Positions 1,453 to 14,976 of a stretch of DNA of 56,740 bases are shown here, in pieces. The notes beneath the pieces are model-generated. The model was given only the letters and a program-made list of their open reading frames with translations. It made no database searches and had not been told where the DNA came from. Numbering within the stretch: position 1 is the first letter of the stretch; each line of letters opens with the position of its first letter. The stretch is from Thauera phenylacetica B4P (GTDB lineage: Bacteria; Pseudomonadota; Gammaproteobacteria; Burkholderiales; Rhodocyclaceae), in contig NZ_AMXF01000004.1 of NCBI RefSeq assembly GCF_000310225.1, forward strand, positions 1-56,740, given 5' to 3'. Made by a program: the position numbers and the translations under genes.

Positions 1453-2505
1453 TTACCCCGCAGCCCCTGCCAGGATCCGCGTCGCGAGCTCGCGCACCCC
1501 GGCCTCGCTGAGGTCGGCGCTGTCCACCCGCAGCGCGTCGGCATAGTTCACGTAGTTGTGGTTCTGCGAACGGTGGTAGAGCGGGTCGTAGTGCTGGTCG
1601 ATCAGTTCGGCGAAGAGCTCGGGCAGGGCGTGGACGGCGGCGAGCGACTTCCAGCGCTCGAGCGTCTCGCGGCTCTGGTGTTCGCGCAGGCGGTGGAGCT
1701 TGTCCTGCAGCGCGCCCACGTCGTCGCCGAGGTAGGCATAGTCGCGCACGAGGAAAGCCAGCCGCGCCTCGCGCGTGGCGTCGATCAGCACGCAGGGCGC
1801 TTGCCGCATCGCCAGGATCAGCGGCTCGGGCACGAAGACCAGGCCGATCTTGCGGCTCTCGGCCTCGACATACACCGGGCGCGCCGGGTCTAGCCGGCGC
1901 AGGCGGTCCCACAGCAGGGTCTCGAAGCGCTTCTGCGCGGGCTGCGGGCGGTCGGGCAGGGCGCCCAGCACCGAGCCCTTGTGCGCGGCGAGGTCCTCCA
2001 GGTCGAGCACCTGCGCGCCCTGCGCCGCGAGCGCCTCGAGCACGCGCGTCTTGGCGCTGCCGGTGGGGCCGCACACGATGCGCAGCGCCAGCGTGGGCAC
2101 GATGCGCGCGATCTCGGCGATGACGTGGTGGCGAAACGCCTTGTAGCCGCCTTCGAGCTGGCGGGCATCCCAGCCCACCATGCGCAGCCAGGTGGCGAAC
2201 GAACCGCTGCGCTGGCCGCCGCGCCAGCAGTAGATCAGCGGGCGCCAGTTCTTCGGCTTGTCCTGCAGCACCGCGAGCATGTGGCGCGAAATGTTGGCGG
2301 CGACCAGTGCGCCACCCAGGCGGCGGGCGTCGAAGGCGGATTGCTGCTTGTACATGGTGCCGACGACGATGCGCTCGTCGTTGTCGAGCACCGGCAGGTT
2401 GATCGCGCCGGGGATGTGGTCTTCGGCGAACTCGGCGGGCGTGCGCGCGTCGATGATCTCGTCAAAGCCGGACAGCTGTGCTACGGTCGCGACGCCTTTT
2501 TGCAT
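1453..2505 (-). CDS. mnmH: tRNA 2-selenouridine synthase
   Basis: A 350-residue protein of the MnmH/SelU (YbbB) family. It replaces sulfur with selenium at 2-thiouridine in the tRNA wobble position, using selenophosphate. The N-terminal rhodanese domain (about 1-125) carries the catalytic loop CWRGGQRS and the segment DARTPAEFAEDHIPGA. The C-terminal half has a P-loop, CGPTGSAKT. The ATG at 2505 (MQKGVATV) gives the usual family length; longer in-frame starts run back into selD. It is divergent from selD, its selenophosphate supplier, with a 58-bp shared upstream region, so the pair is likely co-regulated. Confidence 0.95.
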   Translation of the reverse strand: MQKGVATVAQLSGFDEIIDARTPAEFAEDHIPGAINLPVLDNDERIVVGTMYKQQSAFDARRLGGALVAANISRHMLAVLQDKPKNWRPLIYCWRGGQRSGSFATWLRMVGWDARQLEGGYKAFRHHVIAEIARIVPTLALRIVCGPTGSAKTRVLEALAAQGAQVLDLEDLAAHKGSVLGALPDRPQPAQKRFETLLWDRLRRLDPARPVYVEAESRKIGLVFVPEPLILAMRQAPCVLIDATREARLAFLVRDYAYLGDDVGALQDKLHRLREHQSRETLERWKSLAAVHALPELFAELIDQHYDPLYHRSQNHNYVNYADALRVDSADLSEAGVRELATRILAGAAG

Positions 2506-2563
2506 AGTGTTGACACGACGCGCGGCGCCTCTTGCGCCGCGTGTCGCTTTCTCCCTCGGAAAC
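2506..2563. promoter_or_regulatory. Shared divergent region of mnmH and selD
   Basis: Only 58 bp separates the two start codons, so both 5' control regions lie here or overlap the coding ends. It contains an imperfect dyad (GACACG and CGGCG pairing with CGCCG and CGTGTC around 2511-2545). This could be an operator or an mRNA hairpin; no known motif is recognised. Confidence 0.4.
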
Positions 2564-3604
2564 ATGAACGAAATCAGACTGACCGAATTCTCCCACGGCG
2601 GCGGCTGCGGCTGCAAAATCGCGCCCGCCGTGCTCTCCGAACTGCTCGCCACCATGCCCGCCGGCCTGCTGCCGCCCGAGCTGCTGGTGGGCACCGACAC
2701 CGCCGACGACGCCGCGGTGTACAGGCTCAACGATCGCCAGGCCATCGTCGCCACCACCGACTTCTTCACCCCGATCGTCGACAACGCGCGCGACTTCGGC
2801 CGCATCGCCGCCACCAACGCGCTGTCGGACGTCTATGCCATGGGCGCCACGCCGATCATGGCGCTCGCGATCGTCGGCATGCCGCTCGACAAGCTGCCGC
2901 CCGAGGTGATCGGCGAGATCCTCAAGGGCGGCGCCGAGGTCTGCCGCGACGCGGGCATCCCGATCGCGGGCGGGCATTCGATCGACGTGCTCGAGCCGAT
3001 CTACGGTCTGGTCGGGCTTGGCGTGGTCGACCCCGCACGGGTGCGCACCAATGCGGGAGCCAAGGCGGGTGACGTGCTCATCCTCACCAAGCCGCTGGGC
3101 ATCGGCATCCTGTCGGCGGGGCTCAAGAAGGGGCGGCTGTCGGCAGACGGCTACGCGCAGATGATCCGATGGACCACCACGCTCAACCGCGTCGGCGCCA
3201 GGCTCGCCGACATCGACGGCGTGCACGCGGTGACCGACGTCACGGGCTTCGGCCTCGCCGGCCACCTGCTCGAGATGTGTCGCGGCGCGTCGTTGACCGG
3301 CGCGGTGCATTTCGACGCGCTGCCGGTCATCGAGGAGGCGCGCGTGCTGGTGCAGGACGGCGTCGCCACCGGCGCATCGACGCGCAACTGGGCGAGCTAT
3401 GGCGCCGACGTCGATCTGCCGGCGGATGCGCCGGAGTGGCAGCGCAAGCTCGTCACCGACCCGCAGACCTCGGGCGGGCTGTTGATCGCCTGCGCGCCGG
3501 AGGCCGTCGAGGCCGTGCAGGCCGCGGTGCGTGCCGAACAGGGCGAGGCCGGGACGATCGTCGGCGAGATGAGCTCGGGCCCCGCCCGCGTCGTCTTCGG
3601 CTGA
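2564..3604 (+). CDS. selD: Selenide, water dikinase (selenophosphate synthase), Cys form
   Basis: A 346-residue protein making selenophosphate from selenide and ATP. The product feeds both SelA (Sec-tRNA) and MnmH (tRNA 2-selenouridine). The N-terminal glycine-rich loop GGGCGCKIAP has cysteine at the position that is selenocysteine in some SelD proteins, so this one does not itself need UGA decoding. Other family blocks seen are DDAAVY, TTDFFTPIVDN, AGGHSID and TDPQTSGGLL. The ATG at 2564 gives normal family length. The 3' end is followed after 7 bp by two REP pairs. Confidence 0.97.
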   Translation: MNEIRLTEFSHGGGCGCKIAPAVLSELLATMPAGLLPPELLVGTDTADDAAVYRLNDRQAIVATTDFFTPIVDNARDFGRIAATNALSDVYAMGATPIMALAIVGMPLDKLPPEVIGEILKGGAEVCRDAGIPIAGGHSIDVLEPIYGLVGLGVVDPARVRTNAGAKAGDVLILTKPLGIGILSAGLKKGRLSADGYAQMIRWTTTLNRVGARLADIDGVHAVTDVTGFGLAGHLLEMCRGASLTGAVHFDALPVIEEARVLVQDGVATGASTRNWASYGADVDLPADAPEWQRKLVTDPQTSGGLLIACAPEAVEAVQAAVRAEQGEAGTIVGEMSSGPARVVFG

Positions 3605-8127: not shown

Positions 8128-8544
8128 TCAGAAGCCGATGAGCTTGCGATTGGGCTCCAGCATCGAGCCCGCCATGTCCGCCGGCTTGGCGGGCTTGATG
8201 CCGTCCTTCAGGTCCTCGGGCTTCTTGCCGCTGTTGGGCAGGTAGAGCGCGCACACCGAAGCGGTGGCGCCCTTCTTCATCGCGCCATCGAGCAGCTGCG
8301 CCGGCGTCACGTTGTTCGGCTTGAGCGCTTCGCCGCCCGCGCCCTTGAGCGCGAGGTCGCCGGCGTGGTCGCACAGCAGGATGTCGACCTGCGCGCCCTG
8401 TTCCTGCATCTGGTTGGCCAGCACCATGGCCATGCCCTGGGTCATCGGGCTCTGGGCGTTGAGGACGACGGTGACGGCCTGCTTGTCGGCGAAGGCCGTG
8501 GTGGAGCCAAGGGCGATGGCGAGGGCGACGAGGGTTTTTTTCAT
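8128..8544 (-). CDS. Periplasmic DsrE/DsrF-like protein
   Basis: A 138-residue protein with a cleavable signal (MKKTLVALAIALGSTTAFA). Its body resembles the DsrE/F fold: VTVVLNAQSPMTQGMAMVLANQM, then DILLCDHAGDLALK and GATASVCALYLPNS. Cys residues at the DILLCD and ASVCAL positions are where sulfur-carrier cysteines sit in DsrE relatives. It is probably a periplasmic sulfur- or metal-related protein; the exact role is unknown. It shares an operon with DUF3817 and DUF2141 genes behind the palindromic operator at 8993-9014. Confidence 0.82.
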   Translation of the reverse strand: MKKTLVALAIALGSTTAFADKQAVTVVLNAQSPMTQGMAMVLANQMQEQGAQVDILLCDHAGDLALKGAGGEALKPNNVTPAQLLDGAMKKGATASVCALYLPNSGKKPEDLKDGIKPAKPADMAGSMLEPNRKLIGF

Positions 8545-8585
8545 GGCAATGCTCCTGAGGACAGAGAAGGGAGGACGAACGGGAA

Positions 8586-8885
8586 TCAGGCCTGCAATTC
8601 CGGGTAGGCCTGGCGCAGCTTGTAGTCGGCGAGGAAGGCGCCCAGCGGCAGGAAGGCTCCGACGATCAGCATCATTGCCAGCCCGGGCCGCAGCAGCCCG
8701 CGTCCGAGCGCAGCCAGCGTGGTGACTGCCAGCGACAGGAAGAGCGTTCCGTGCAGCGGGCCCAGTACCTTGACGCCGAGCGGCTGGTCGAGCAGGTACT
8801 TGAACGGCACCGCGACGAAGACGAGGGCGAGCAGCGCGAGGCCGTCGGAGAAGGCGAGCCAGTAGAGGATCTTGCGGTGGGTCAT
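8586..8885 (-). CDS. DUF3817-family membrane protein
   Basis: A 99-residue protein with three predicted membrane segments (about 8-28, 40-62 and 67-85) and a pattern typical of DUF3817: LGPLHGTLFL after LLDQPLGVK. The ATG at 8885 (MTHRKILYW) is chosen; longer in-frame extensions lack a ribosome-binding site and would run towards the operator. Function unknown. It is first in the operon with the DsrE-like and DUF2141 genes. Confidence 0.82.
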   Translation of the reverse strand: MTHRKILYWLAFSDGLALLALVFVAVPFKYLLDQPLGVKVLGPLHGTLFLSLAVTTLAALGRGLLRPGLAMMLIVGAFLPLGAFLADYKLRQAYPELQA

Positions 8886-8992
8886 CGGGCTTGGTTCCGG
8901 TTGCCTTGCGAGGGGTGGCCGCCCGCCTGCGGAAGGTGGTTGAAATTGGGCGCTGGCATTGCGCACGGGCAAGTGCGGTGCGCTCGGCGGCA

Positions 8993-9014
8993 TTTATATT
9001 CTTCAGAATATAAA
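8993..9014. promoter_or_regulatory. AT-rich palindromic operator upstream of the DUF3817/DsrE operon
   Basis: A perfect 9-bp inverted repeat, TTTATATTC and GAATATAAA, around the loop TTCA. It is in sharp contrast to the GC-rich surroundings and about 108 bp upstream of the DUF3817 start. Dyads of the ATATTC/GAATAT kind are bound by ArsR-family regulators such as BigR/SqrR, which control persulfide-related genes. That link is an inference supported only by the DsrE-like protein in the operon. Confidence 0.55.
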
Positions 9015-9220
9015 CAAATACTAATATCTGAGCCAGCAATTTTCCCGCTACGAGCAGGAAGAGCCCGCCAGCCCTCGCCGGCGGGGGCGCGCTGCGAACG
9101 GATACAAGCAAACAGCGCGCCAAGTAAATCAGGCTACGCAGCAGGCGGGCAAGTGCGGCTCGATGTCGCAGCGGATGGCCACATCACTGCTGCCAATGGC
9201 TGTCACGTACTGCCACCTCT

Positions 9221-9241
9221 CGCGGGTCGTTGCGACCCGCG
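9221..9241 (-). terminator. Stem-loop just downstream of tRNA-Sec
   Basis: A 9-bp perfect stem, CGCGGGTCG and CGACCCGCG, with a TTG/CAA loop, beginning 10 bases beyond the CCA end of the tRNA. No U-run follows, so it may be a processing or Rho-assisted 3' end rather than a classical terminator. The gap from here to 9014 has no recognisable gene. Confidence 0.5.
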
Positions 9242-9250
9242 CCTTGGCGC

Positions 9251-9347
9251 TGGCGGAAGAGAATGGGAGTCGAACCCACCTGGGACCGGCTGACGGCCCC
9301 ACCTGGTTTTGAAGACCAGTCGCCCCACCGGGGAACGCCTCTCTTCC
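9251..9347 (-). tRNA. selC: tRNA-Sec, anticodon UCA
   Basis: 97 nt including an encoded CCA. The acceptor stem has 8 bp (GGAAGAGA with TCTCTTCC), discriminator G. The anticodon arm is CTGGT-CTTCAAA-ACCAG with UCA in the loop. A long variable arm (GGTGGGGCC...GGTCCC region) and a T arm with loop TTCGACT are present. The long acceptor stem, long variable arm and UCA are diagnostic of selenocysteine tRNA. Its first base (9347) is the last base of the selB stop codon, so mature tRNA must be cut out of the selAB transcript. Confidence 0.97.
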
Positions 9348-11347
9348 TATGGAGGCGCGATTGTAACTCGCCCCTCCTGGTTTTCGCCCGAAACGGGCGC
9401 TTCGCCTCGAAGGGTGTGGGCCAGCCCATGGCCTGCGCCGATGCGACGCGTAAAGCCGACGCGGTCGAAGAACTCGAGGATCTGGATGGAGCGCTTGCGT
9501 CCGCCGCCGATGAGGTCGCGGAAATCCGCCGCCCGCACACGGCCCTCGTTGCGCTCGGCCAGCTCCGCGACGATGCCGACCAGGCGGGCCACCGTGGCGC
9601 GCGGATAGAAGAGGTCGCGCACGACCTGGAACACCTCGCCGCACATCGCGACGCGGCGCAGCAGGCTGCGCACCTCGGCCTCGGGGATCTCGCAGGCTTC
9701 GGCCAGGTCGCGAACCCAGGGCGGGTCGTAGGCGCCCTCGGCGAGCCGCGCGAGCAGCGCATCGGCGCGCCGACGGTCTGCGCGGTCCAGCTCCACCGTG
9801 TGCGAGGGCAAGTGCCAGGCCGAACCGGCGCGGGCGATGCGGCCCTCCGCCAGCAGCGCCTCGAGGCGGGCGAGGAAGGCCGGCGCGGGCAGCCGGGGGG
9901 CGCACATGCGGCGCAGGCGCTCGCGCTCGACGCCGGGTTCGTCGGCAAAGGCCTCGTGGTGCGCGGCCAGCCGTGCCAGCACGGCCTCACCGAGCGCAGC
10001 CCATGCGGCCGCCGAGAACACGCGTCCGCCGGTCTTGCCTTGCAGGTGGTGCGCCTGCGGCAGCAAGACCTGCCAGCGGCCCTCGGGCAGGTTGTGCGCG
10101 GCGGCGAGCTCGTCGAGCTCGAGCCCGAGCGGCGCGCTCGCAACCAGGCCCGCAAGGCGCTCGGCCGGGTCGGGTCGTTCGAGGACGGCGAGCAGCGCGA
10201 GGCGGTCCGGGCGCCGACGGTGGCGCGAGGGCGGGAAAGGGTCGAGGACGCGGCCGCCGCCCAGGGTCTCGCGGCCGGCGGCGTCGCGGATGACGATGCG
10301 GTCACCGCAGCAGGCGAACACCGGGCGGTCGAGCACCGCCTGCACCAGCGCCGAAGCGCCCGGGGCGAGCCCGCCGGCCTCCAGTGCGTCGTCCAGCAGC
10401 ACCAGGCGTGCCATCGCATGCCCGCCGGCGTGGTGCAGGGTGACGCTGGCCCACTGGCCGAGCTTGCGTGGCGCATCCGCCAGCAGCTCCAGGCGCAGAT
10501 CGAGGCGGTCGGTCGGGCGCGCGAGGGCGGGGTGGAGCAGCCAGTCGCCGCGCTCGATCTCGCCGAAGTCGATGCCACCGAGGTTGACCGCGCAGCGGCT
10601 GCCCGCGCCGGCGGTGTCTGCCTTGCGGTTGTTTGCGCGCAGGCCGCGCACGCGCACCTCGCGGCGAAAACCCTCGGGGCGCGCCAGCAGCAGGGTGTCG
10701 CCCACCCCGACCACGCCCGAGCGCACCGTGCCCGTGACGATCGTGCCGGCGCCGGCGAGCGCGAAGCGGCGGTCGGCGACGAGCCGGAAGCCGGCGTCGG
10801 GTGGGCAGGCGTCTTCGTCCCGCGCGATCGCCAGCAGGTGGGCGCGCAGCGCATCGATGCCGTCGCCGGTGATCGCCGAGATCGGAAAGACCGGGCTGCC
10901 GGCGAGGGCGGTCGATGCCAGCAGTTCCGCGATGTCTGCCTGCACCTCGGCAATACGAGCCGGCTCGACGCGGTCGCACTTGGTCAGCGCCACCGCGCCG
11001 CGTGCGATGCCGAGCAGGTGAAGGATGGCGAGGTGCTCGCGGGTCTGTGGCATCACGCCGTCGTCGGCGGCAACCACGAGCAGGGCGTAGTCGATGCCCG
11101 CGGCGCCCATCAGCATGGTCGGCACGAAGCGCTCATGACCAGGCACGTCGATGAAGCCGAGGGTGCGCGCGGCGGCGGCCGGGTCGCCACGGGTCACATC
11201 GCCGTCGATCGCCGCAAACGCATAGCCGAGCTCGATGGTGATGCCGCGCGCCTTCTCCTCGGGCAGGTGGGTCGTGTCCACGCCGGTGAGCGCGCGGATC
11301 AGCGTGGTCTTGCCATGGTCGATGTGGCCGGCGGTGCCGATCAGCAT
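9347..11347 (-). CDS. selB: Selenocysteine-specific elongation factor SelB
   Basis: A 666-residue GTPase that delivers Sec-tRNA to UGA codons marked by a SECIS hairpin. The EF-Tu-like G domain is at the N-terminus (G1 [13 protein letters not shown]3 DVPGHE, G4 TKCD), then domains II-III. C-terminal winged-helix repeats (about 400-640) bind SECIS RNA; the last repeat includes [19 protein letters not shown]. Full length. The start at 11347 lies 19 bases after the selA stop. Its stop TAG shares its final G with the first nucleotide of tRNA-Sec. Confidence 0.97.
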
Positions 11348-11366
11348 GCTGGTGTGCTCTCCTGGT

Positions 11367-12782
11367 TCATCGGGCGGCGGTGCGCGCCGCGGGAGCGAGC
11401 TGCACGAGCTGGGTCGCGAGGCGGGCCTCGTCCTCGCTGCGCAGGCAGCGCAGGTCGAGCCACAGCGCGTTGTCGGCGATGCGGCCGATCACCGGCACCG
11501 GCCGATCGCGCAGCGCCTTCTCGAGCCGGTTGAGCACGCCGCCCTTCTTTTGCGGACGGCACACCAGCCCGGCGGAGGGCAGGCGATCGACCGGCAGGCT
11601 GCCCGAACCGATCTGCGAGCGCATCGGCTCGACGCCGACCGTCAGCGGCCAGTCGGCGAGTGCCCGCGCCAGCGCCGGCTGCAGGCGCTCGGCCTGGGCG
11701 AGGATCTCGGCCTGGGGGCGGACGAGCAGGCGCAGGGTCTCGAGGCGCTCGGGCAGGCGATCGGGATCGCGATACAGGCGCAGCACGGCCTCCAGGCCGG
11801 CGAGCGTGATCTTGCCGACGCGCAGCGCGCGCTTGAGCGGGTTCTTCTTGATCGTCGCGATCAGCTAGCGGCGGCCGGCGAGGATGCCGGCCTGGGGGCC
11901 GCCGAGCAGCTTGTCGCCGGAGAAGGTGACGAGGTCGGCGCCGGCGGCGATCGCCTCGCGCGGGGTGGGCTCGTGCGGCAGGCCCCAGGCCTCCAGCCCG
12001 GTGAGCGTGCCCGAGCCGAGGTCCTCGACGAAGGGCAGGCCGCGGGCGTGGGCGATGGCGGCGATCTCGGCCTGCGGCACGACCTTGGTGAAGCCCTCGA
12101 CCGCGTAGTTGCTGGTGTGCACCTTCATCAGCATCGCGGTGCGCGGGCCGATCGCGTCCTCGTAGTCGCGGGCGTGGGTGCGGTTGGTGCAGCCCACCTC
12201 GACGAGCTTCGCGCCGGCGCGCTTCATGATGTCGGGCACGCGGAAGGCGCCACCGATCTCGACCAGCTCCCCACGCGAGACGACGACCTCCTTGCGCTGT
12301 GCCAGCGTGTTGAGCAGCAGGAAGACCGCTGCCGCGTTGTTGTTCACCACGGTCGCGGCCTCGGCGCCGGTCAGCTCGGCGACCAGCGCGGAGACGAGGT
12401 CGTCGCGGTCGCCGCGTCCGCCCGATTCGAGGTCGTATTCGAGCGCGCAGGGGTGGCGCGCGGCCTCGACCATCGCGGCGATCGCCTCCTCGGGCAGCGT
12501 GGCGCGGCCGAGGTTGGTGTGCAGCACGGTGCCGGTGAGGTTGAACACCGGACGCAGATTCGGCCGGCAGACGGTGTCGATGCGAGCTTCGACCGCGGCC
12601 AGCAGCGCGGTGAGCTCGGGCAGCGGGGCGCCCTTGCGCACGGCCTCACGGGTGGCCGCGAGCGCGGTGCGGACGGCGTCGGTGACGACGCGACGCCCAT
12701 GCAGGGCGGTGTGCGAGACCAGCGCCGGCTCGGCGAGCAGGCGATCGACTGCGGGGAGGGAGGCCAGGTTCGTGCTTGTCAT
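11367..12782 (-). pseudogene. selA: L-seryl-tRNA(Sec) selenium transferase, interrupted by one amber codon
   Basis: The frame encodes 471 codons of a normal SelA: PLP-dependent conversion of Ser-tRNA(Sec) to Sec-tRNA(Sec) with selenophosphate. The PLP lysine is Lys291 in [13 protein letters not shown]. Codon 306 is TAG (11865-11867); the same frame then continues without any gap as [18 protein letters not shown], matching the family, to the normal C-terminus. Relatives have a residue such as Glu here, so a single GAG-to-TAG change would explain it. Everything else looks intact, so this is a very recent mutation, a sequencing error, or a suppressed amber. No other start with a good ribosome-binding site would make a useful C-terminal piece. 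Confidence 0.9.
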
Positions 12783-12871
12783 GAAATCGTGCTGCGTCGG
12801 ATCGGGTGAAAGCCGTGAAGCTTGAATACGCTGGAAACCGAATGAGCCAGGAAGGCGGGGCCCGAAAGCAG

Positions 12872-12894
12872 AACCCCGCCACGCGGGCGGGGTT
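12872..12894 (-). terminator. Terminator-like hairpin between the selenoperoxiredoxin gene and selA
   Basis: A perfect 9-bp stem, AACCCCGCC with GGCGGGGTT, and a 5-base loop, 21 bp past the peroxiredoxin stop codon. In transcript sense it is followed by CTGCTTTC, a poor U-run. It may reduce readthrough from the peroxiredoxin gene into selAB-selC, which lie on the same strand. Confidence 0.65.
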
Positions 12895-12915
12895 CTAGGC
12901 CTTTGCCGCGACGGA

Positions 12916-13521
12916 TCACTCCATCGACGGGTTCCACACCTTCCACACCTTGCCGACCAGATCCGGCCCCGGCTTGAGCGTCGGTTTCCCGGGCTCCCAA
13001 CCGGCTGGTGTCGCTTCCTTGCCGCCCGTCGCGCGGACGTGCTGGAAGGCCTGCACCTGCCTGACCGTCTCGGCGAGCTTGCGTCCGACCGGCGGGGTCA
13101 TCACCTCCATGGCCTGCACCACACCATCGGGGTCGATGATGAAGCGGCCACGCATTTCGATACCCTGCTGATCGTCATAGACGCCGTAGGCGCGCCCGAT
13201 GTTGCCTGCCTGATCGGACAGCATGTGGAAACGAACACCGCCGTCGACCATCTTCGACAGCTCCTCGTCGTTCCAGATCTTGTGGACGAAGTGGCTGTCC
13301 ACGCTGACCGAGAAAACCTCTACCCCCAATGCCTGGAGAGCATCATATTGCGCTGCGACCGCAGACACTTCTGTTGCTCAGACAAAGGTGAAATCACCGG
13401 GGTAGAAGCACAGCATCACCCACTTGCCGGCATAGTCGGACAGCTTCACGTTGGTGAAACCGCCGCGGTAGTACGCCGGTGCCGCGAAATCCGGCGCCTT
13501 CTGTCCCACGCGTGCGACCAT
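12916..13521 (-). CDS. Selenocysteine-containing peroxiredoxin (AhpC/TSA family), in-frame UGA at 13378-13380
   Basis: Read through one UGA, the gene encodes 201 residues of a peroxiredoxin. The peroxidatic motif is [14 protein letters not shown] with Sec at residue 48, exactly where relatives have Cys. The frame continues with conserved [35 protein letters not shown] and [10 protein letters not shown]. The usual resolving Cys near the C-terminus is absent (ATPAGW replaces CPANW-like sequence); Cys38 is the only other thiol before Sec. The chosen ATG at 13521 has AAGGAGG at ideal spacing. An in-frame ATG at 13632 also has GGAGGG and would add 37 residues. A SECIS hairpin follows the UGA. It reduces peroxides in the cytoplasm and lies next to selA-selB-selC. 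Confidence 0.93.
13350..13368 (-). promoter_or_regulatory. Bacterial SECIS element of the selenoperoxiredoxin gene
   Basis: Nine bases after the UGA the transcript folds as GTG-T-CTGC-GGTC-GCAG-CGC: a lower stem (GUG/CGC), one bulged U, a 4-bp upper stem and a GGUC loop. The bulged U and a loop containing GGU are the SelB contacts known for the E. coli fdhF SECIS. The distance from UGA to the loop (17 nt) is close to the 18 nt there. Confidence 0.88.
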
Positions 13522-14028
13522 TCTGGGTACCTCCTTGTGAGCGGCGGGCTCCGGTGGAGCCTGCTGCGATTCAACGGGCGCTTCGGGCACTGCTCCCGAG
13601 ACGCGCGAGCATGATGCTTCCTGCTCTTCCATGTTGCCCTCCGTGTCGTGCGGAAACCCGGCACTGCTTCCCGCGCTCTCGCGTGGTGGTGCGGTGACAG
13701 GACTTCCGCGGTTGGAACGGTGCTCTATCAGTCACCGCTTATACCGTATGCCCGCGCAGCGCCGGGGTCAATCGAAAAATATGTGTGCAAATGGACGGAC
13801 TGCCTGCGCTGGCGTACGAATTCGTCATGCGTCGATGCTGCCAGTGCCCGTCTCCTGTCTGGCGCCGCGAGCCAGGAGACGGGGCTGCAAGGCGAAGCCG
13901 GTTTCGTCTTCCACATCAGTACATCGTCCCGTCCGGGCACGCGGCTTGCATCGGTGATCTACGAAACTACAGTGAAAAGCCTAAGCAGGTTCCGTTCCAT
14001 TCGAACCGCTACGATCAGGAGCCCGATC
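13522..14028. other. Intergenic region between divergent peroxiredoxin and radical SAM genes
   Basis: 507 bp with no convincing separate gene. It holds the possible 37-codon in-frame extension of the peroxiredoxin (13522-13632), a widely spaced 8-bp inverted repeat GCGGTGAC (13691-13698) and GTCACCGC (13731-13738), and a long hairpin at 13847-13883 with an 11-bp stem (CCCGTCTCCTG with CAGGAGACGGG). The hairpin lies about 145 bp before the radical SAM start; no recognised RNA family fits. Confidence 0.5.
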
Positions 14029-14976
14029 ATGGACATCGCCTTCGGCCCCGTACCGTCGCGCCGGCTCGGCCGCAGTCTCGGCATCAACAACATCCCACCG
14101 AAGCACTGCAGTTATGCCTGCGTGTACTGTCAGGTCGGCCCGACGCCAGAGGAGGAGATCAGCCCGCGGCCCTCCTATCGGCCGGAGGAGATCCTGCGCC
14201 AGGTGCGCATGAGGCTCGAGGCCGTGCGCGCCCACGGGGATGCGGTCGATTACCTCACCTTCGTCCCCGATGGCGAGCCGACGCTGGACAGTCGCCTCGG
14301 CGAGTCGATCGACGCGCTGCGCGAACTCGGTCTGCCGATCGCGGTGATCAGCAATGCATCGCTCCTCTGGTACGCCGATGTCCGCTCGGCGCTGCGCCGG
14401 GCGGATTGGGTCAGCGTCAAGGTCGACAGCGTCGTCCCCGGCGTCTGGGAGCGGATCAATCGCCCCCACGGCGTGCTGCGCCTTGCCGACATTCTTGGCG
14501 GCATCCAGCGCTTCGCCTCGGAGTTTGCCGGGCGGCTGGTGAGCGAGACGATGCTGGTGGCCGGACTTAACGACGGCGACGAGGACATCGCCGCGCTGGG
14601 GCGCTTCATCGCGACAACACGCATCGGGCGTGCCTACCTCGCAATTCCACATCGCCCGCCGGCGGTCGCGGGGGTGCGCGGCCCGGACGAGGCGGTCGTC
14701 CTGCGTGCGTTTCGGACGCTGGCGGACAAGGGGCTCGAGGTGGAGTTGTTGACCGCCTACGAGGGCGACGTGTTCGCCTTCGGCGGCGACCTGCGCGTCG
14801 AGATCCTGGCGATCAGCGCGGTGCATCCGCTGCGCACCTCCGCGATCCAGGCCCTGCTGGATAAGGGCGGTGGCAGCATGGCGCTGGTGGATGCGCTGCT
14901 CGCCTCGGGCGAGCTGCGCAGGCTCGAGCACGAGGGAGAGGTTTTCTACCTGCGGCGGCTGCACCGCGAGGGATGA
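14029..14976 (+). CDS. Radical SAM protein (COG0731-like)
   Basis: A 315-residue protein. The cluster-binding motif CSYACVYC (CX3CX2C) is at about residues 24-31, after FGPVPSRRLGRSLGINNIPPKHC, a start typical of the COG0731 family. Then follow YLTFVPDGEPTLD (the GE motif contacting SAM) and AVISNAS. The ATG at 14029 has CAGGA 8 bases upstream. The family includes wyosine-like tRNA enzymes, but the bacterial members are uncharacterised, so no reaction is assigned. The C-terminal ~70 residues look like a winged helix (RTSAIQALLDKGGGSMALVDALLASGELRRLEHEGEVFY). Confidence 0.88.
   Translation: MDIAFGPVPSRRLGRSLGINNIPPKHCSYACVYCQVGPTPEEEISPRPSYRPEEILRQVRMRLEAVRAHGDAVDYLTFVPDGEPTLDSRLGESIDALRELGLPIAVISNASLLWYADVRSALRRADWVSVKVDSVVPGVWERINRPHGVLRLADILGGIQRFASEFAGRLVSETMLVAGLNDGDEDIAALGRFIATTRIGRAYLAIPHRPPAVAGVRGPDEAVVLRAFRTLADKGLEVELLTAYEGDVFAFGGDLRVEILAISAVHPLRTSAIQALLDKGGGSMALVDALLASGELRRLEHEGEVFYLRRLHREG

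What the first reader, a model, noticed from the sequence alone, without database searches (positions are those of the whole stretch)
12916..13521. Selenocysteine peroxiredoxin with a textbook SECIS, encoded next to selA-selB-selC
A UGA falls exactly at the peroxidatic Cys position (FTFV-U-ATEV) in an otherwise continuous peroxiredoxin frame. It is followed 9 nt later by GTG-T-CTGC-GGTC-GCAG-CGC, which has the bulged U and GGU loop that SelB recognises. The usual resolving Cys is missing, leaving Cys38 as the only other thiol before Sec. The gene, selA, selB and tRNA-Sec lie in tandem on one strand, a compact selenocysteine island. Sec-peroxiredoxins are a known family; the island arrangement and the missing resolving Cys make this one worth testing.
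Basis: partly seen in the sequence, partly recalled or inferred. Interest (0 to 1): 0.85.

Follow-up and report, generated by a model that had tools for sequence, protein, structure and literature searches.

The report
Two-start selenium peroxidase gene
The gene encodes a selenium-containing antioxidant enzyme of a known family (PrxU); this copy and nearly all of the arm-bearing relatives compared carry a second internal translation start that could make one form with, and one form without, an extra cysteine-bearing arm.

Summary
A selenoperoxiredoxin gene of the known PrxU family (NF040737, 384 bits, cut-off 270) lies on the minus strand at 12916-13632. An in-frame UGA sits at the peroxidatic site, followed by a bacterial SECIS. 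Stem pair 15/24, joining two synonymous codon positions, is Watson-Crick in 53/53 and 50/50 distinct relatives, in all four pair types. selA, selB, selC, selD and mnmH lie nearby.

The full frame starts at 13632 and adds a 37-residue arm with Cys8 in a conserved motif (GC.RP.G), so Cys75 (its Cys38) is not the only thiol before Sec.

The internal start looks real too: 52 of 54 clusters of arm-bearing PrxU genes keep ATG/GTG/TTG 3-6 codons before the core, all 52 with a Shine-Dalgarno stronger than synonymous recoding gives (P 1.8e-10); core Mets show none. I infer two forms, one with and one without the thiol arm. I found no description of this in eight paper searches; the founding 2001 paper was not held.

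Against an operon, a terminator-like hairpin separates prxU from selA. In this assembly the only selA has an in-frame TAG.

The parts
12916..13632 (-). prxU, long form: 238 aa, start ATG 13632-13630, stop TGA 12918-12916
   Evidence: NF040737 match 2-232 of 233, 384 bits, one TGA inside; arm motif pN/pS 0.17 in 23 pairs of close relatives
   Evidence: internal initiator with Shine-Dalgarno in 52 of 54 clusters of arm-bearing genes; the window is represented there by L048, 99% identical
13637..13642 (-). Shine-Dalgarno of the long form (GGAGGG)
   Evidence: read; duplex energy -10.0
13530..13536 (-). internal Shine-Dalgarno of the short form (AAGGAGG)
   Evidence: read; duplex energy -11.4
13609..13611 (-). 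codon of arm Cys8 (motif SC-S-R-V-S-G; commonest in relatives GC.RP.G)
13408..13410 (-). codon of Cys75 (Cys38 of the short form), 10 residues before Sec
   Evidence: invariant in 66 of 66 aligned PrxU and 57 of 57 of a second set
13378..13380 (-). UGA for Sec85 (Sec48 of the short form), the peroxidatic position
13350..13368 (-). SECIS hairpin GUG-U-CUGC-GGUC-GCAG-CGC, 9 nt after UGA
   Evidence: fold, and covariation at synonymous sites of the upper stem
12870..12896 (-). terminator-like hairpin after prxU (AGAACCCCGCC-CGCGT-GGCGGGGTTCT), before selA; the T-run of the window's copy is weak
   Evidence: same kind of hairpin in 11 of 11 prxU-selA intergenic stretches;
11367..12782 (-). selA, interrupted by in-frame TAG at 11865-11867; the only selA found in the held genome
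9347..11347 (-). selB, with three winged-helix domain models matched
   Evidence: TIGR00475 409 bits, Pfam domains
9251..9347 (-). selC, tRNA-Sec (anticodon TCA)
   Evidence: ARAGORN; Rfam RF01852 73.6 bits, 9255-9347
2576..3505 (+). selD (profile match; inside ORF 2258-3604)
   Evidence: TIGR00476 425.7 bits
1453..2817 (-). mnmH, tRNA 2-selenouridine synthase (ORF; profile match 1552-2466)

Best explanation
This is a PrxU selenoperoxiredoxin gene. SelB with Sec-tRNA(Sec), bound to the SECIS just after the UGA, inserts Sec85 at the peroxidatic position of an AhpC-type core (supported by sequence and covariation; not shown on protein). The gene has two in-frame starts, each with its own Shine-Dalgarno: the upstream one gives a long form with a flexible arm carrying Cys8, the internal one a short form without it (inferred from conservation). 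Peroxide oxidises Sec85 to the selenenic acid. In the long form Cys8, on its roughly 30-residue tether, most likely attacks it to form a selenylsulfide that thioredoxin reduces, a task done by the C-terminal resolving Cys in typical 2-Cys enzymes; the short form would work in one-Sec fashion or mix into the same oligomer (inference from established peroxiredoxin chemistry). The confidence given is for Sec insertion plus two starts; I put the Cys8 step alone at about 0.45.
For: Family: NF040737 384 bits against a cut-off of 270, over the whole profile including the arm. SECIS: pair 15/24 Watson-Crick in 53/53 and 50/50 distinct relatives with all four pair types; GU in the loop in 53/53 and 50/50; loop ends G-C or A-U in all. 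Arm: Cys in 58 of 66; in 23 pairs of close relatives pN/pS is 0.17 in the motif, 0.60 in the linker, 0.07 in the core. Internal start: 52 of 54 clusters have ATG (48), GTG (3) or TTG (1) 3-6 codons before the core, against 85 of 840 four-codon windows elsewhere in the linker; SD energy -9.24 against -5.11 for synonymous recoding, stronger in 52 of 52, P 1.8e-10; 258 Met codons inside the cores show none (-3.55 against -3.79). The second set alone, fetched afterwards, gives P 6e-8 on its 24 ATG sites. Where Met is replaced by Val or Leu, the codon is still GTG or TTG behind an SD (L080, L194, L204, L212). One of the two exceptions, L093, has what looks by eye like an export signal before the arm, where an internal start would leave the protein in the cytoplasm. 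In the founding PrxU of Peptoclostridium (Eubacterium) acidaminophilum the annotated gene is 240 aa with GC9ARP, and one of two internal AUGs gives 203 aa with Sec47, 22438 Da; 203 residues and Sec47 are what I recall from the 2001 description, which I could not open.
Against: No protein or ribosome data. The arm Cys is kept in 21 of 22 proteins that still have the C-terminal resolving Cys, so it is not simply its replacement. 7 of 43 without that Cys also lack the arm: five have a Cys two residues before the Sec/Cys, two (L096, L104) have neither; 3 of 57 in the second set lack both. The second set holds the best-scoring loci of a profile that includes the arm, so its arm frequency is biased upward. 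The Cys-homologue control for the SECIS is thin: in both (L095, L105) the GGUC/AGUU loop is gone, but pair 15/24 still pairs. The outer SECIS stem covaries at one of three pairs only. The only selA of this genome has an in-frame stop, so the assembled genome may not make Sec at all. No structure could be predicted.
Confidence: 0.6

Rival explanations
1. Only the long form is made; the internal Shine-Dalgarno and start codon are relics of an older, arm-less start or serve to pause ribosomes before the core.
For: Arm-less PrxU proteins exist (8 of 66) and begin at or next to this position, so it could be an ancestral start.
Against: The linker has about 0.44 synonymous differences per synonymous site even between close relatives, yet the site is kept across phyla, is realised through different amino acids, and shows Val or Leu only as GTG/TTG. 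Pausing alone does not need a start codon at the right spacing.
Confidence: 0.22
2. Only the short form is made; the upstream stretch is leader.
For: The internal SD of the window (-11.4) is as strong as the upstream one (-10.0).
Against: The upstream frame is open with a Cys in 58 of 66 proteins, its motif is under amino-acid-level constraint (pN/pS 0.17), it has its own start and SD (mean -9.5 in the 56 genes with an internal ATG), and NCBI's profile and the annotated gene of P. acidaminophilum include it.
Confidence: 0.08
3. One-Sec mechanism: the selenenic acid is reduced directly by thioredoxin or a small thiol; arm Cys8 has another task (docking, metal, regulation).
For: Some PrxU lack both arm and C-terminal Cys (L096, L104, L213-L215); the arm persists where the C-terminal Cys is present (21 of 22).
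Against: The arm Cys is the most widely kept Cys outside the core in the first set (58 of 66).
Confidence: 0.3
4. The TGA is a nonsense mutation in a decaying AhpC gene.
For: selA of this genome is itself interrupted.
Against: TGA at the same codon in 65 of 69 sequences examined, the other four being two Cys forms, one truncated and one outgroup, with a covarying SECIS; core pN/pS 0.07.
Confidence: 0.01

Closest known systems
PrxU, selenocysteine peroxiredoxin of Peptoclostridium (Eubacterium) acidaminophilum (NF040737)
   Same: 61% identity over residues 8-234; Sec at the peroxidatic site, UGA followed by the same kind of hairpin with AGTT loop, arm with GC.RP, internal SD-AUG, no C-terminal resolving Cys
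   Different: No sel genes in the 3 kb shown on either side; in the window selA, selB and selC follow
AhpC / typical 2-Cys peroxiredoxins (TIGR03137, PF00578, PF10417)
   Same: Core family and active-site region FYPGDFTFV-(U/C)-.TE
   Different: Sec for Cys; C-terminal resolving Cys replaced by Thr208; TIGR03137 below its cut-off (201.7 against 272); Cys75 where the two best solved relatives have Val or Phe
Bacterial SECIS elements such as E. coli fdhF (recalled)
   Same: Short stem just 3' of UGA, bulged U, GGUC loop
   Different: Two loop states across the family, GGUC or AGUU
Bacterial genes with two in-frame starts giving long and short forms (PMC11005335, title and abstract start seen in a search listing only)
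   Same: Internal SD and start codon in frame
   Different: I found no such report for PrxU in the searches named in the full report

Membership tests
PrxU (NF040737) | score over NCBI's curated cut-off | tested here: met
   384.1 bits against 270
PrxU (NF040737) | in-frame UGA at the peroxidatic position | tested here: met
   13380-13378; same place in the alignment
PrxU (NF040737) | SECIS 3' of the UGA | tested here: met
   covariation
PrxU (NF040737) | peroxidase activity with thioredoxin | not testable with these tools
   needs the protein
typical 2-Cys peroxiredoxin | C-terminal resolving Cys | tested here: not met
   Thr208 at that place
selenocysteine-using genome | selA, selB, selC, selD present and intact | tested here: inconclusive
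   all four found, but the single selA has an in-frame TAG
two-start gene | two conserved in-frame initiation sites with SD | tested here: met
two-start gene | both proteins made | not testable with these tools
   no expression data on hand
prxU-selABC operon | one transcript | tested here: inconclusive
   tandem and co-oriented, but a terminator-like hairpin lies between prxU and selA in 11 of 11 stretches; the formal scan of 9100-14000 found 3 terminator-like sites against 1.7 (sd 1.4) in shuffles, so the scan alone is not significant

The most novel reading that the evidence does not exclude
PrxU genes of several phyla are two-in-one genes: tandem ribosome entry sites make a long selenoperoxiredoxin with a tethered resolving thiol and a short one without it, so the cell sets the share of subunits that can be resolved by their own arm. 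This would be a built-in way to tune a peroxidase between a rapidly recycled catalyst and a slowly resolved sensor or relay.
Probability: 0.45. Interest if true: 0.72.

Novelty: new variant of a known kind. Interest (0 to 1): 0.55.

Why it matters
The gene itself is one more member of a known selenoprotein family. What is new, as far as I could search, concerns the family: a conserved second start and a conserved thiol arm. If both forms are made, how a selenoperoxiredoxin without the classical resolving Cys is recycled becomes directly testable. The family is not rare: over the cut-off in 129 of 395 genomes sampled from the phylum of L071 (9 of the 142 matches there, counted by hand, show no TGA) and 49 of 398 from that of L088, but 2 of 369 from the window's class, the window's own included.

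Tried and rejected
Nonsense-mutation reading of the TGA: rejected by the SECIS covariation. A simple prxU-selABC operon: weakened by the hairpin. Arm Cys as a strict replacement for the lost C-terminal Cys: rejected, since both coexist in 21 proteins. A SECIS-like hairpin just before selA, seen in 4 of 12 loci (L053, L060, L061, L062), was looked for in the window and not found; the one formal hit there lies in the terminator-like hairpin region. PrxU on viral contigs: 46 stretches matched a pattern, none confirmed. Sec-dependent formate dehydrogenase: 10 molybdopterin (PF00384) matches in the genome, none with an in-frame TGA; the 12 other PF00578 matches also have none. No further selenoprotein families were searched, so PrxU is not shown to be the only one. 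The outer SECIS pairs 10/28 and 11/27 do not covary (16/53 and 24/53 paired, 16.9 and 24.0 expected); pair 12/26 does (34/53, 20.5 expected).

Full report
Observation. The gene is on the minus strand. Reading 13521->12916 with TGA as Sec gives the peroxiredoxin frame described, with U at the peroxidatic position. The hairpin GTG-T-CTGC-GGTC-GCAG-CGC starts 9 nt after the UGA. ARAGORN and Rfam find tRNA-Sec at 9251/9255-9347, and NCBIfam names SelB and SelA on the same strand. selD (match 2576-3505 +) and mnmH (match 1552-2466 -) are in the same window, so selA, selB, selC, selD, mnmH and prxU lie within about 12 kb.

Family. NF040737 (PrxU, 'thioredoxin-dependent peroxiredoxin') matches with 384 bits over positions 2-232 of 233; the frame from 13521 alone matches 35-232. 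The scan of genome contigs gave 80 loci, its limit (165 encoded a relative). I used 66 proteins: 63 of these 80, plus L019, L128 and the window. Three loci were dropped as truncated or as an outgroup (L106, L111, L112), and 14 (L113-L117, L119-L127, mostly archaeal records, 36-44% identity) were not used. Nearest relatives are Thauera: L048 (99%), L049, L050.

SECIS. Of 69 sequences examined, 65 have the TGA; they give 53 distinct rows. The stem 14-17/22-25 is paired save one row at 14/25 and three at 16/23. Pair 15/24 joins the third bases of two codons, so it can change without altering the protein; it shows GC 23, AT 21, CG 7, TA 2 and no mismatch, against 28.7 paired expected from the columns. 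The loop ends 18/21 are GC 34 or AT 19, and the middle is GU in all 53. In a second set of 50 distinct rows pair 15/24 is AT 31, GC 16, TA 2, CG 1, with GU in all 50. Of the outer stem only pair 12/26 covaries (34 of 53 paired, 20.5 expected). The bulged base is T in 44 of 53 and 42 of 50. These counts do not correct for shared descent, but four pair types and two loop states are hard to obtain without selection. Two Cys homologues (L095, L105) have lost the GGUC/AGUU loop, though pair 15/24 still pairs in both; two rows are a thin control.

Arm. The frame runs on upstream of 13521 to an ATG at 13632 with its own Shine-Dalgarno. It adds [37 protein letters not shown]. In relatives the beginning is GCARPTG-like: 58 of 66 proteins have a Cys in this arm, one of them (L101) a doubtful one at residue 3. 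In 23 pairs from 13 groups of close relatives that I chose, pN/pS is 0.17 in the motif, 0.60 in the linker and 0.07 in the core. The arm is thus very probably translated and selected. Outside the arm the window's protein has only Cys75 besides Sec, invariant in 66 of 66 and 57 of 57. By recalled AhpC structure it lies in a core strand, which makes it an unlikely resolving residue.

Two starts. The window has AAGGAGG (13536-13530) before ATG 13521. I tested whether this is a family feature. A first look found an ATG within 8 codons of the core in 56 of 58 arm-bearing genes. After clustering at 85% identity, 24 of 26 clusters have it, with SD energy -8.53 against -5.34 for synonymous recodings of the same residues (P 1.2e-7). 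I then fetched new loci from the phyla of L071 and L088 (both phyla also occur in the first set) plus two plasmid-borne genes: 61 loci, 57 parsed, 4 not handled by my patterns (L166, L174, L183, L217). 28 new clusters remained, each at most 81% identical in the core to the first set; 24 have ATG, -9.89 against -4.92, P 6e-8. Of the six clusters without ATG, four have GTG or TTG there behind an SD: L080, L194, L204, L212. The two real exceptions are L093, whose arm is preceded by what looks like an export signal (by eye), and L216. Together 52 of 54, all 52 stronger than their control, P 1.8e-10; 258 Met codons inside the 54 cores show no SD. The window itself is represented by L048. One search picked the ATG by SD strength; picked it by distance only; one search used SD strength only to choose among GTG/TTG codons where no ATG exists. 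Clusters are not fully independent, so the P values are too small. The founding PrxU shows the same layout: the annotated gene has 240 aa, and the second of its two internal AUGs gives 203 aa, Sec47, 22438 Da. I recall 203 residues and Sec47 from Sohling et al. 2001 (10.1515/BC.2001.123), which is not held.

Resolving thiol. The C-terminal resolving Cys is absent in 43 of 65 scorable proteins of the first set and 57 of 57 of the second; the tree needs four changes, of which strongly supported branches alone force two. 36 of these 43 have the arm Cys, five others have Cys two before the active residue, two have neither. But 21 of 22 proteins with the C-terminal Cys also keep the arm. So the arm is not a mere substitute, and its role as resolving thiol is an inference. 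In the full listings 34 of 142 matches and 24 of 49, counted by hand, begin at profile position 14 or later. Arm-less PrxU is thus probably common too, although one such match (L216) has an arm and one lies at a contig end.

Neighbourhood. selA and/or selB homologues lie near prxU in 11 of 67 relatives' loci (L048, L049, L050, L053, L058-L062, L064, L068), tRNA-Sec in eight of these. In L059 they lie before prxU. A GC-rich hairpin separates prxU from selA in all 11 stretches folded, the window included; most have a T-run after it, the window's is weak. So prxU may end its own transcript at least in part. selA and selB are 19 nt apart and selC abuts selB. SelA of a family member without a PrxU match (L136, genome G498) is 82% identical, so the sel genes need not have travelled with prxU.

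selA. The single selA of the genome has an in-frame TAG at 11867-11865; the copy of L048, 97.8% identical DNA over 8128-13920, is intact. Whether this is an assembly error, a strain polymorphism or a real loss cannot be told without reads. If real, Sec would not be made and PrxU would stop at residue 84.

Literature. Eight searches were run. One search, for peroxiredoxin, selenoprotein, internal translation and start codon together, found none, with N-terminal extension and resolving cysteine, listed three papers, none on bacterial PrxU by title and abstract start. Passages only were read of: PMC13188914 (2026 review: Prx listed as PF00578, motif TxxU), PMC9312934, PMC1088965 (43 Prx genes in the Sargasso Sea), PMC7409299 (PrxU up-regulated in Sulfobacillus), PMC8533274, PMC4046663. 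None of the passages mentions an arm or two starts. PMC4046663 reports PrxU genes in only two of its sulfate reducers; one search suggests the family is commoner than that in one phylum.

Verdict. A genuine selenoperoxiredoxin gene, ordinary as a family member, whose family carries a conserved second start and thiol arm that I did not find described.

Noticed in passing
window 11865-11867 (-): In-frame TAG in the only selA found in the genome; the close relative L048 has an intact copy. Unclear whether assembly error, polymorphism or loss of Sec synthesis.
   Followed up: partly
window 12870-12896 (-); L048, L049, L050, L053, L058, L060-L062, L064, L068: Terminator-like hairpin between prxU and selA in 11 of 11 stretches.
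   Followed up: partly
L053, L060, L061, L062, within about 25 nt before the selA start: SECIS-like hairpins (CCC-GGTC-GGG or TCC-AGTT-GGA with outer stem) next to the selA start in 4 of 12 loci, reminiscent of the SECIS-like element of E. coli selAB (recalled); not found in the window.
   Followed up: partly
L093:3057-3848: PrxU with what looks like an export signal in front of the arm Cys; besides L216 the only arm-bearing cluster without an internal start.
   Followed up: partly
L107-L110, L105: Arm-less PrxU of Dehalococcoidia and Syntrophus records carry Cys two residues before Sec/Cys (FTCV-U/C), perhaps another thiol solution.
   Followed up: no
window 13648-14976 (+): Divergent ORF next to prxU matching Radical_SAM, with weak similarity to the viperin family (38 bits against a cut-off of 180).
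   Followed up: no
The PrxU family is common in the sampled phylum of L071 (129 of 395 genomes), 13 of these with two matches.
   Followed up: no
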